Positions 6,925 to 10,902 of a DNA stretch of 64,000 nucleotides are shown in pieces. Under the pieces are notes generated by a model. That model was not told the origin of the DNA and did no database searches. It saw only the letters and a program-made list of their open reading frames with translations. The stretch spans positions 45,287 through 109,286 of IMG/VR virus record IMGVR_UViG_3300017730_000002, one strand, 5' to 3'. The DNA is from a virus. Within the stretch, counting starts at the first letter, position 1, and every line of letters begins with the position of its first letter. Position numbers and translations under genes: made by a program.

Positions 6925-7172
6925 TACATCAAAAACAAGAAGCTAATACGAATTATCCAAAAGTAAAAGATGATGGGCAGAGATTAATAGATGCTCATTT
7001 AAAATTTGATTCACCTTCTAAAAATGTAATAGGAGAAAAGTTGTACCCTAGAGAAGCATTGCAAGCAGCAATTGTAACAGCTAAAGAGTTAGCTAGTGCT
7101 ACTGCAAAGGCTCATTGGTATAAAGTGCTTACATATTTAGAAAATCAACAACAAATAAAATATGGTAGATAG
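6921..7172 (+). CDS. Hypothetical protein, 83 aa
   Basis: Not recognised. Mostly helical with an alanine-rich centre (EALQAAIVTAKELASATAKAH). No motif, signal or metal site. ATGA overlap upstream and an 11-base overlap with the helicase gene downstream suggest translation coupled to the helicase and perhaps a helper role. Confidence 0.55.
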   Translation: MIHQKQEANTNYPKVKDDGQRLIDAHLKFDSPSKNVIGEKLYPREALQAAIVTAKELASATAKAHWYKVLTYLENQQQIKYGR

Positions 7173-8259
7173 AGATAAAGTACAAGCTGAAGCTCTAAAG
7201 AAAACTATAGGTATTAACAGATGTGGTTTAGGATTGGCTACAGGTGTCGGTAAGACACTTGTAGCACTAAATCATCTGGAGAGTAACTATTCTCCATTGC
7301 TTAATATACTTGTAGTTGCACCAAAACTATCAATTTTTGATAGTTGGAGAGCAGAAGCAAGAAAATTTGATAAAGAAAAGTTATTGGTAAGAGCTACATT
7401 TACAACTTACTTAAGCTTAAATAAACAAAATCCCAAGGACTTTGATATTGTATATCTAGATGAATGCCATAGCTTATTAAATTCTCATAAAGAGTTTCTA
7501 AATGAGTATAATGGTAAGATTCTAGGTCTTACAGGCACACCGCCTAAATATCACAAATCTGAGAAAGGTGTGTTAGTAAATGAATTCTGTCCAATAGTAT
7601 ATGAATTTGTTACTGATAGTGCTGTAGATAATAATATTCTAAATGATTATCAGATAATTGTACATGAGCTTGAGTTAAGCACAAAGAATAATTATCTAGT
7701 AGAAATGAAGAATAAGAGTTTTAAGACTTCAGAACAAAAAAATTACGGTTATTGGTGTAACAGAATTGAAGCTGGTGCAGGGTCTATGCATATGCTGCGT
7801 ATTATGAGAATGAAAGCTATGAAAGAATATCCCAGTAAAGAACAGTATGCTAAATTATTGTTTGAGAGTATTCAAGATAAATGCATAATGTTTGCTAATA
7901 CCCAAGATCAAGCTGATAAATTATGTGAGCATAGCTATCATAGCAAGAATCCTGAATCTGAAGATAATCTTGAAATGTTTAAAGAAGGTACTATAAGTAA
8001 ATTATCTTCTGTAATGCAATTAAATGAAGGTGTAAACATTCCAAATTTAAGACAAGGAATTATTATGCATGCATATGGTAATGAAAGAAAGTCTGCTCAG
8101 AGGATAGGAAGGTTACTGAGGCTTAATCCAGATGAAAAAGCTATAGTACATGTATTATGCTATAAACATACTGTAGATGAAAAATGGGTAAAGACTGCCT
8201 TAGAAGGTCTAGATAGTTCCAAAATAGAATGGAAGAACTACAATGTTAACCTGGGTTAG
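7162..8259 (+). CDS. SF2 DEAD/DEAH-type DNA helicase, 365 aa
   Basis: ATP-dependent nucleic-acid translocase of superfamily 2. Walker A is GVGKT (residues 28-32), the DECH box begins at residue 100, motif III is GLTGTP, and the second RecA-like domain ends with QRIGRLLRLN (motif VI, arginine finger). It is shorter than most DNA repair helicases, with little beyond the two motor domains, like the compact SNF2/UvsW-style helicases of phages. Likely roles are fork remodelling, recombination or replication restart. It follows an HNH gene and precedes a ClpS-like gene. Family assignment is firm; specific pathway is not. Confidence 0.9.
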   Translation: MVDRDKVQAEALKKTIGINRCGLGLATGVGKTLVALNHLESNYSPLLNILVVAPKLSIFDSWRAEARKFDKEKLLVRATFTTYLSLNKQNPKDFDIVYLDECHSLLNSHKEFLNEYNGKILGLTGTPPKYHKSEKGVLVNEFCPIVYEFVTDSAVDNNILNDYQIIVHELELSTKNNYLVEMKNKSFKTSEQKNYGYWCNRIEAGAGSMHMLRIMRMKAMKEYPSKEQYAKLLFESIQDKCIMFANTQDQADKLCEHSYHSKNPESEDNLEMFKEGTISKLSSVMQLNEGVNIPNLRQGIIMHAYGNERKSAQRIGRLLRLNPDEKAIVHVLCYKHTVDEKWVKTALEGLDSSKIEWKNYNVNLG

Positions 8260-8296
8260 ATAGCTATTATCTGCCCAAAAATTAGTATATTATTAT

Positions 8297-8551
8297 ATGG
8301 GTGAAGCTAAAACACATAAGGTTATTTTGTATAATGATGACATACTCAGTTTTGATTATGTCACAGCATGCTTGATGGAGATATGTAATCATACACCTAT
8401 TCAAGCAGAACAATGTGCCCTTACAGCACATAATAATGGTAAAGTAACTATTATTTCTGGAGATTTTGATGAAATGTACAAAGTATTAGAAACACTGACC
8501 ATGGTAAGTGTTGAAGTAGATATAGAAGCATATGAAAGCAATTTGTATTGA
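8297..8551 (+). CDS. clpS: ClpS-like N-degron adaptor, 84 aa
   Basis: Resembles the ClpS adaptor that hands proteins with destabilising N-terminal residues to ClpAP/ClpCP. The core is complete: the NDD motif at residues 13-15 (KVILYNDD), the following helix with HTPIQAEQCALTAH, and H45 in HNNGK, equivalent to the pocket histidine of bacterial ClpS (HYQGK). Length equals the folded core of the family, and the N-terminal extension is very short. It overlaps the next gene by 20 bases. The likely effect is to redirect host Clp proteolysis or protect phage proteins; the direction is inference. The motif match is strong, and phage copies appear unusual. Confidence 0.8.
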   Translation: MGEAKTHKVILYNDDILSFDYVTACLMEICNHTPIQAEQCALTAHNNGKVTIISGDFDEMYKVLETLTMVSVEVDIEAYESNLY

Positions 8552-8873
8552 CAGTAGTAACAAGCCAGAAAACATTTCAGAATATGAATGGGTGGAAGAA
8601 GGTCGTGTATATACTATTACTGAAGTAGTAGAAATGGGTTTGCAAAACGGTAAACTAGGAATTGCCTTAGAAGAAATACAGCTTACAGATGCTTCTGCTC
8701 CTTACAAGTATTATTCTTTAGAAAGATTTTTATTAGTTCCTGAAAACTTAAGCATTAAGCTTAAAGAACTAAGTGATGAGGATATGAGAGATTGGCAAGA
8801 ATCCAGTCTTAAAACTATAGCTAAAGAAATAGATGCATATGAAGAAGATGCAGATTTGACAAATTCAATTTAA
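8532..8873 (+). CDS. Hypothetical protein, 113 aa
   Basis: Function unknown. The first ~65 residues look like a small beta barrel of a kind often met in Bacteroidota mobile elements (MKAICIDSSN..., then a YTITEV strand). An acidic helical tail follows. It overlaps the ClpS-like gene by 20 bases, so the two are probably co-translated and could cooperate. No catalytic motif is visible. Confidence 0.6.
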   Translation: MKAICIDSSNKPENISEYEWVEEGRVYTITEVVEMGLQNGKLGIALEEIQLTDASAPYKYYSLERFLLVPENLSIKLKELSDEDMRDWQESSLKTIAKEIDAYEEDADLTNSI

Positions 8874-9776: not shown

Positions 9777-10619
9777 ATGAGTGCGGAAATTAAGCATCAA
9801 AATACTAAAACCCTAGTTACCAAAGACAATAATAATAGTGCAAATTGCATAGCTCCTAACCTAGTATATGGTTGTTTTGGAGGCTGTGTAGATACCTATT
9901 GTTATATGTCCAGGTATAATGGTCATAGAGTATTTGTAAATGAGAATGTAGATGATATATTTAACTCTGTTGTAGAGTGGGAGAAAGGTTTTACCAAGGT
10001 CCCTGATCAGCAGGATCCAATATATACCATGGTAGATGTTGCATGTAATACTGATTTAGTGCTAATGCAGCGTTATTTACCTGAACCATTGATAGATTAT
10101 CTCAAAAGATATGATAATCACCCTACCTTGAATTCAACTATGGCAACTAAGTATCCTAGTTTGTTGAAACTTGACGTCAAAAAGTTCAACAAAAAACCAA
10201 GGGTAAGAGTTAGTCTTATGCCACAAAGGTTTGCAGACGTGTTGGAGCCTAAGATGCAAAAGGTTGCAAGAAGGATTCCTGAGATCAATAGACTTAAAGA
10301 CCTTGGGTGGGAAGTGCACGTTAACTATAGTCCTCTTGTTTTCTACAAGAAATGGAAAGAAGACTACAGTGAGTTGTTTAAGATGGTAAAGGATGCAGCA
10401 GGAGTAAATAAATGTGAGGTAATTGCATTAACTAATCATGCTAATCAAATGGCAAGGTCTTCTGATGCGGCCAGAGAATTAATGAGCCTTAGCTATGAAG
10501 TAAAAAATAGCTCAGGTGTTATGAGGTATCCTTTGAAACATAAAACAAGGTTACTTGAGGAGTTTAAAGAACTATACTCACAGTACTTTGATTTAGACAC
10601 AATAAGGTATATTTTCTAA
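9777..10619 (+). CDS. Radical SAM protein, spore photoproduct lyase-like, 280 aa
   Basis: Resembles the spore photoproduct lyase (SPL) branch of radical SAM enzymes, iron-sulfur proteins that use S-adenosylmethionine to repair thymine dimers. Near the N terminus C33, C37 and C42 in YGCFGGCVDTYCYMSRY form the likely cluster site. Further on, RVRVSLMPQ, the ILEPK-like VLEPKMQK and GWEVHVNYSPLVFYKKW match the SPL pattern. The spacing CX3CX4C departs from the family's CX3CX2C, so chemistry or substrate may differ. As a stand-alone DNA repair gene it would pair with the phage uracil-DNA glycosylase. Family call moderate; function inferred. Confidence 0.65.
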   Translation: MSAEIKHQNTKTLVTKDNNNSANCIAPNLVYGCFGGCVDTYCYMSRYNGHRVFVNENVDDIFNSVVEWEKGFTKVPDQQDPIYTMVDVACNTDLVLMQRYLPEPLIDYLKRYDNHPTLNSTMATKYPSLLKLDVKKFNKKPRVRVSLMPQRFADVLEPKMQKVARRIPEINRLKDLGWEVHVNYSPLVFYKKWKEDYSELFKMVKDAAGVNKCEVIALTNHANQMARSSDAARELMSLSYEVKNSSGVMRYPLKHKTRLLEEFKELYSQYFDLDTIRYIF

Positions 10620-10766: not shown

Positions 10767-10840
10767 GCACCCATAGCTCAGATGGATAGAGCAACTGCCT
10801 TCTAAGCAGTAGGTCTTAGGTTCGACTCCTAATGGGTGTA
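10767..10840 (+). tRNA. tRNA-Arg (anticodon UCU)
   Basis: Complete cloverleaf: acceptor GCACCCA/TGGGTGT with one G-T pair, D stem GCTC/GAGC, anticodon stem ACTGC/GCAGT with loop CTTCTAA giving anticodon TCT, T arm TTAGG-TTCGACT-CCTAA, discriminator A. CCA is not encoded. It reads AGA, which is the dominant arginine codon across these phage genes, so it probably supplements host decoding. Confidence 0.95.
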
Positions 10841-10902
10841 CTAAGGGTGTTACTCCACAACGGCAATGTTATGTTAAGGTCTAGGAAGTGTAGTAGAGGT
10901 GA

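What the first reader, a model, noticed from the sequence alone, without database searches (positions are those of the whole stretch)
8297..8551. Phage-encoded ClpS-like N-degron adaptor
NDD at 13-15 and H45 in HNNGK preserve the pocket that binds N-terminal residues, and the size matches the ClpS core. ClpS directs substrates to ClpAP or ClpCP. A phage copy could redirect host N-degron degradation, or shield virion-delivered proteins. I know of no standard phage ClpS role.
Basis: partly seen in the sequence, partly recalled or inferred. Interest (0 to 1): 0.8.

Follow-up and report, generated by a model that had tools for sequence, protein, structure and literature searches.

The report
Tail-less ClpS pair in crAss-like phages
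A large group of crAss-like phages from environmental samples carries its own copy of ClpS, the protein that hands marked proteins to the bacterial shredder; every copy examined lacks the tail that the shredder pulls on and sits beside one unknown partner gene, so it may block the host's degradation route rather than feed it.

Summary
Window 8297-8551 (+) encodes an 84-aa ClpS: PF02617 at 59 bits (cut-off 23), AlphaFold pLDDT 93, VIA-align Z 15 to solved ClpS. The pocket signature N13-D14-D15 and H45 is present. The genome is a crAss-like phage (109 kb record). Phage ClpS genes are not new: jumbo phages have them and a 2021 review mentions them.

(1) This ClpS is a core gene of one crAss-like clade, derived from Bacteroidota ClpS: 33 phage sequences form one clade (100/99). 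(2) The N-terminal extension (NTE), which ClpA pulls on to deliver substrates in E. coli, is missing across the clade: the conserved ATG lies 11-12 codons before the pocket Asn in 84 of 84 loci, against 25 or more in Bacteroidota. (3) ClpS is locked to an overlapping unknown gene, g8532: of 80 loci chosen by the neighbouring helicase, 78 have both, 2 have neither, none has one.

Best explanation: an NTE-less N-degron binder that occupies N-degrons and probably the host Clp N-domain without delivering, with g8532 as partner. The anatomy is shown; the function is inferred. New variant of a known kind.

The parts
8297..8551 (+). ClpS core protein, 84 aa, without N-terminal extension
   Evidence: PF02617 59 bits; AF2 pLDDT 93; Z 15 to ClpS
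8333..8341 (+). N13 D14 D15, equivalent to E. coli Asn34-Asp35-Asp36 of the N-degron pocket
   Evidence: gapless alignment; N and D 100% in 33 phage rows, third position D 85% N 15%
8351..8353 (+). F19, at the position of the E. coli pocket residue Met40; Phe is the Bacteroidota form
   Evidence: F 100% in Bacteroidota rows, F 88% Y 12% in phage rows
8429..8431 (+). H45, equivalent to E. coli His66
   Evidence: 97% in phage rows; Asp in about 10 of 71 helicase-selected loci
8261..8263 (+). in-frame TAG; only 11 codons, none a start codon, lie between it and the ATG, so no N-terminal extension can be encoded
8532..8873 (+). g8532, unknown 113-aa partner; predicted SH3-like barrel (about residues 1-70) plus C-terminal helix
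   Evidence: always found with ClpS; AF2 barrel pLDDT about 85-94, whole pTM 0.57; best VIA Z only 5.8 to SH3
8532..8551 (+). 20-nt overlap of ClpS end and g8532 start; explains the phage-specific ClpS C-terminal tail (YESNLY) and suggests coupled translation
7162..8259 (+). SF2 helicase directly upstream; 37 nt gap to ClpS
   Evidence: PF04851/PF00271; adjacent in 83 of 84 ClpS loci of the clade; relatives almost only in crAss-like phages
8286..8299 (+). AT-rich TATATT...TATATG just upstream of and including the ClpS start, conserved among phage relatives; possible translation or transcription signal
   Evidence: upstream sequences

Best explanation
The gene is a Bacteroidota-derived ClpS that crAss-like phages have kept as an NTE-less N-degron binder, translated together with an obligate partner, g8532. 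Proposed steps: (1) it folds like ClpS and keeps the pocket for N-terminal residues (shown by model and conservation); (2) it lacks the flexible N-terminal extension that the Clp unfoldase must grip to hand the substrate over (absence shown in the DNA; need for it taken from E. coli ClpAPS work); (3) in a host that already has a full-length ClpS, it therefore holds N-degron proteins, and probably the Clp N-domain, in complexes that do not lead to degradation, acting as a competing decoy or shield for phage or host proteins during infection (inferred); (4) g8532, a small predicted SH3-like protein never found without it, is needed for this, perhaps by binding ClpS as HspQ/YccV-type proteins do (inferred).
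For: Fold and pocket. One phage clade (33 rows, 100/99, one group in 100% of 200 bootstrap trees) next to Bacteroidota ClpS. NTE absent: nearest ATG 11 or 12 codons before the pocket Asn in 84/84 phage loci; 44/84 have an in-frame stop within 19 codons; 53/84 have no other upstream start; 78 Bacteroidota loci start at 25 or more (77 ATG, 1 GTG) and none has a stop within 20 codons; same in a second Bacteroidota sample; helicase-ClpS gap 4-38 nt. Model residue 1 aligns to E. coli ClpS residue 23. NTE is pulled into the ClpA channel, and blocking its entry inhibits delivery: PMC9663308. Pair: 78 both, 2 neither, 0 single among helicase-chosen loci; 80/80 g8532-chosen loci have ClpS. Hosts have their own ClpS: 195 of 198 Bacteroidota genomes. 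No Clp_N chaperone in G000 or five other phage records. Precedent for YccV/HspQ proteins binding ClpS as co-adaptor or anti-adaptor: PMC7966870.
Against: No binding or degradation was measured. The need for the NTE is known for E. coli ClpA, not for Bacteroidota ClpC. In 18 of 84 loci another in-frame ATG lies 19-23 codons upstream of the pocket Asn. The third pocket residue and the His vary in some members, so not all may bind N-degrons. The host's conserved Pro in helix 3 (92%) is Glu (85%) in phages, so binding to the Clp N-domain may itself be changed. The SH3-like call for g8532 is weak.
Confidence: 0.45

Rival explanations
1. Two-part adaptor: g8532 binds ClpS and supplies in trans what the missing NTE supplied, so that the pair retargets host ClpCP to chosen proteins, like the plant ClpS1-ClpF pair.
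For: Perfect pairing and overlap of the two genes; g8532 has a C-terminal helix/tail of low confidence after a predicted SH3-like barrel; ClpF carries a YccV domain and forms a proposed binary complex with ClpS1 (PMC7966870).
Against: g8532 shows no sequence relation to any known family and only weak SH3-like matches. No interaction was tested.
Confidence: 0.25
2. Ordinary adaptor: Bacteroidota ClpC does not need the NTE, and the phage ClpS simply adds N-degron delivery or changes its specificity.
For: Pocket kept under purifying selection. A jumbo-phage review proposes delivery to host ClpAP (PMC7824862).
Against: All Bacteroidota ClpS examined keep an extension, while the phage clade has lost it throughout. 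It does not explain g8532.
Confidence: 0.18
3. Repurposed fold: the ClpS domain no longer meets Clp and serves the neighbouring helicase or another phage protein.
For: Helicase-ClpS-g8532 order is nearly fixed; host interface residues such as the helix-3 Pro have changed; some members lost the pocket His.
Against: N13, D14 and mostly H45 remain conserved, which a scaffold role does not need. The helicase also occurs without ClpS in L237 and L238 and in isolated crAss-like phages.
Confidence: 0.12

Closest known systems
Bacteroidota chromosomal ClpS (PF02617), e.g. Chryseobacterium, Maribacter
   Same: Same fold and same core signature ND[DN]...F...C.H.P.QAEQC...H..GK; nearest relatives in the tree
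   Different: They carry a longer N-terminus (start 25 or more codons before the pocket Asn), lack the C-terminal tail, keep the helix-3 Pro, and none of four genomes tested has g8532
ClpS of jumbo phages (PA5oct, Phosso, Atu_ph07, GAP32; PHROG 27368)
   Same: Phage-encoded ClpS in a host that has Clp proteases
   Different: Separate lineage; PA5oct, Phosso and Atu_ph07 proteins have about 25 residues before the pocket; no g8532. Vibrio phage 2.275.O does have a short N-terminus, apparently independently
ClpS of 634-642 kb uncultured phages (LR745206, LR756502, LR756504)
   Same: Bacteroidota-type core
   Different: Longer N-terminus (26-29 codons before the Asn in the two read), other gene neighbourhood, fall apart from the crAss-like clade in the tree
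E. coli ClpS lacking its NTE (laboratory truncations)
   Same: Core that aligns from E. coli residue 23 on
   Different: Natural, clade-wide, Bacteroidota type, paired with g8532. Behaviour of the truncations is known to me from the E. coli literature, not tested here
Plant ClpS1-ClpF co-adaptor and HspQ anti-adaptor
   Same: ClpS together with a YccV-type protein (PMC7966870)
   Different: No detectable sequence relation between g8532 and YccV; fold match weak

Membership tests
ClpS (PF02617) | Sequence profile above the curated cut-off | tested here: met
   59 bits against 23
ClpS (PF02617) | ClpS core fold | tested here: met
   AF2 pLDDT 93, pTM 0.82; VIA Z 15.3, 77 aligned, rmsd 1.0
ClpS (PF02617) | N-degron pocket Asn-Asp-Asp and His at conserved spacing | tested here: met
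   N13, D14, D15, H45 in the window; gapless to E. coli N34-H66
N-end-rule delivery adaptor (E. coli ClpS type) | Disordered N-terminal extension that enters the ClpA channel | tested here: not met
   No room or start codon for it in the window; 84/84 phage loci have the ATG 11-12 codons before the Asn
N-end-rule delivery adaptor (E. coli ClpS type) | Binding to the N-domain of ClpA or ClpC | not testable with these tools
   Host partner unknown; helix-3 residues differ from host ClpS
N-end-rule delivery adaptor (E. coli ClpS type) | Stimulates degradation of N-degron substrates | not testable with these tools
   needs biochemistry
crAss-like phage (Crassvirales), for the genome | crAss-type terminase, portal, major capsid protein and helicase | tested here: met
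   phrog_6681 TerL, phrog_6547 portal, phrog_11589 major head protein; TerL and helicase best matched by crAss-like phages and their Flavobacterium relatives
YccV/HspQ or ClpF, for g8532 | Pfam/NCBIfam profile or strong fold match | tested here: inconclusive
   no profile hit; only weak SH3-like matches, best Z 5.8

The most novel reading that the evidence does not exclude
A phage two-protein anti-N-degron system: a naturally NTE-less ClpS plus an unknown SH3-like partner that jointly block, or reprogram, the host ClpS-ClpCP pathway in Bacteroidota during infection. It would be the first known viral inhibitor of the bacterial N-degron pathway, as far as my searches and knowledge go.
Probability: 0.35. 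Interest if true: 0.85.

Novelty: new variant of a known kind. Interest (0 to 1): 0.62.

Why it matters
crAss-like phages are among the most abundant phages, yet few of their host-takeover genes have a testable mechanism. A core gene that is the host's own N-degron reader minus its working tail gives a precise prediction: binds, does not deliver. It would show that the bacterial N-degron pathway matters to phages, for which I found no experimental evidence in the searched library, and would supply a natural dominant-negative ClpS. The strict pairing with g8532 also gives an unknown protein family its first functional lead.

Tried and rejected
Annotation artefact (wrong start codon hiding an NTE): rejected for the window and most relatives, by stops and lack of starts upstream and by the 4-38 nt gap to the helicase. 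Recent capture of a host gene: rejected, since phage sequences form one divergent clade with conserved neighbours. Phage-specific C-terminal tail as a functional element: set aside, because it is encoded by DNA that also encodes the start of g8532. A phage-borne Clp chaperone or L/F-transferase completing the pathway: none found in this record. Human-faeces hit MT835505 (L012): the ClpS lies among genes that look like an actinobacterial chromosome, so it was not counted as a phage. g8532 as a known family: no match in Pfam, NCBIfam, PHROGs, PDB sequences or the phage collection. Papers linking crAss-like phages and ClpS: none in the library searched; the one paper with 'crAss-like' and 'Clp protease' was not read. 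Defence-system models: no hit for ClpS or g8532. The NTE survey is limited to sampled loci and is weighted towards Chryseobacterium in the first bacterial set.

Full report
Observation. The ORF at 8297-8551 (+) is present and codes for 84 aa with NDD at 13-15 and H45 in HNNGK. Pfam ClpS (PF02617) matches residues 4-68 at 59 bits against a cut-off of 23, E=3.9e-16. An AlphaFold2 model on 57 locus sequences has pLDDT 93.1 and pTM 0.82 with the order E-H-H-E-H-E. Foldseek's 38 significant PDB hits are all ClpS, and VIA-align gives Z 15.3 over 77 residues, rmsd 1.0. This is a true ClpS and not a chance motif.

Genome. The window is 45287-109286 of a 109,286-bp virus record. Terminase, portal and major head protein match phage PHROGs 6681, 6547 and 11589. 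The terminase and the helicase next to ClpS are matched almost only by crAss-like phages such as crAss001, DAC15, phi14:2, cr10_1 and by the Flavobacterium phage FpV4 group. So the host is probably a member of Bacteroidota (inference from the hosts of relatives).

Known phage ClpS. ClpS genes are annotated in jumbo phages PA5oct, MIJ3, Phosso, Atu_ph07 and GAP32, and a 2021 review of jumbo phages notes ClpS as an adaptor that likely brings targets to host ClpAP (PMC7824862). No paper in the library joins crAss-like phages and ClpS. In the annotated phage collection only three unannotated records of 634-642 kb match the window protein, so isolated crAss-like phages appear to lack it.

A core gene of one clade. 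A scan of IMG/VR with a six-sequence alignment gave 352 confirmed contigs, of which the best 80 were read. Of the 84 loci of this clade, all have g8532 immediately downstream (two with an insert between) and 83 the helicase immediately upstream, the one exception being cut off by its contig end. Starting instead from the helicase, 78 of 80 loci have ClpS. In a tree of 62 sequences (81 columns, few for so many rows) the 33 phage proteins are one clade at 100/99, beside and probably within Bacteroidota ClpS, and the two 630-kb-phage proteins fall elsewhere. Phage ClpS genes are under purifying selection, dN/dS 0.10-0.27. This points to one old acquisition from a Bacteroidota host followed by vertical descent (inference).

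The missing extension. In 84 of 84 phage loci (the window's own included) an ATG lies 11 or 12 codons before the pocket Asn. In 53 no start codon lies further upstream in frame; in 44 an in-frame stop lies within 19 codons of the Asn; in 18 a second ATG lies 19-23 codons upstream, which would still be shorter than in any bacterium sampled. In the window the 11 codons up to the TAG at 8261-8263 hold no start. In 13 loci measured the gap between helicase stop and ClpS start is 4-38 nt. All 78 Bacteroidota loci start 25 or more codons before the Asn (77 by ATG, one by GTG) and none has a stop within 20 codons. A second Bacteroidota set drawn from a phylum-wide sample agrees. Model residue 1 aligns to E. 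coli ClpS residue 23. In E. coli the N-terminal extension enters the ClpA channel, is pulled by pore loops, and blocking its entry inhibits delivery of N-degron substrates (PMC9663308). The step from that to 'phage ClpS does not deliver' is inference, because Bacteroidota use other Clp chaperones.

Pocket and surface. N13 and D14 are invariant, D15 is D or N, F19 is the Bacteroidota form, and H45 is 97% conserved in the phage alignment. In helicase-selected loci about 10 of 71 have Asp in place of the His and some vary at D15. A Pro in helix 3 present in 92% of host proteins is Glu in 85% of phage proteins. The phage-specific C-terminal tail (YESNLY here) overlaps the start of g8532 by 20 nt and is best read as a by-product of that overlap.

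The partner g8532. Among 80 helicase-chosen loci 78 have both ClpS and g8532, two have neither (L237 and L238, near relatives, probably one loss), and none has one alone. Among 80 g8532-chosen loci all have ClpS. The g8532 query was built from ClpS-bearing loci and only the best 80 of 208 were kept, so more distant g8532 genes without ClpS are not excluded. g8532 has no relative in Pfam, NCBIfam, PHROGs, the PDB or the phage collection and is absent from four Bacteroidota genomes tested. Its model shows a confident small barrel and an uncertain helical tail; the best structural matches are mostly SH3 domains but weak, Z 5.8 at most. [quoted passage not shown]

Mechanism. Nearly every Bacteroidota genome has its own ClpS (195 of 198) and Clp_N chaperones (four of four), while the phage records tested have none of the latter. 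A second ClpS that can bind but lacks the handle for delivery would compete with the host protein for N-degrons or for the Clp N-domain. I therefore favour a decoy or shield, acting with g8532 (confidence 0.45). The main rival is a two-part adaptor in which g8532 replaces the extension (0.25), then an ordinary adaptor in a system that does not need the extension (0.18), then a repurposed fold (0.12).

Verdict. Membership in ClpS is met by sequence, fold and pocket. Membership in the delivery-competent adaptor class fails on one tested feature, the extension. Novelty: new variant of a known kind. Interest 0.62, since it is anatomically unambiguous, widespread and directly testable, but functionally unproven.

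Noticed in passing
9777-10619 (+): Spore photoproduct lyase-like radical SAM protein, much shorter than characterised members; kept near ClpS in many relatives (PF20903).
   Followed up: partly
10767-10841 (+): tRNA-Arg(TCT), 91% identical to a tRNA gene of Bacteroides phage DAC15 and similar to cyanophage tRNA-Arg genes.
   Followed up: no
30761-63988 (-): A run of giant ORFs on the minus strand (1945, 4572, 2103, 1057 and 1014 aa), as expected for the virion RNA polymerase region of crAss-like phages; strand switch at about 30.6 kb with a GC-skew turn.
   Followed up: no
8286-8299 and upstream of ClpS in relatives: Conserved AT-rich TATATT....TATATG directly before the ClpS start; could be a ribosome-binding or promoter element of these phages.
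   Followed up: partly
L103 and L133, between ClpS and g8532: In two phage loci about 750 extra bases lie between ClpS and g8532, possibly a mobile endonuclease gene.
   Followed up: no
L010 (Vibrio phage 2.275.O): An unrelated jumbo-phage ClpS also starts only 11-12 residues before the pocket, with a long C-terminal tail: a possible second case of extension loss.
   Followed up: partly
L009 (Agrobacterium phage Atu_ph07): Its annotated ClpS has His in place of the pocket Asn (LLHDDQ), so it may not bind N-degrons in the usual way.
   Followed up: no
7162-8259 (+): The SF2 helicase scores against PADLOC PbeA models (E 8e-33), most likely shared helicase domains only.
   Followed up: no
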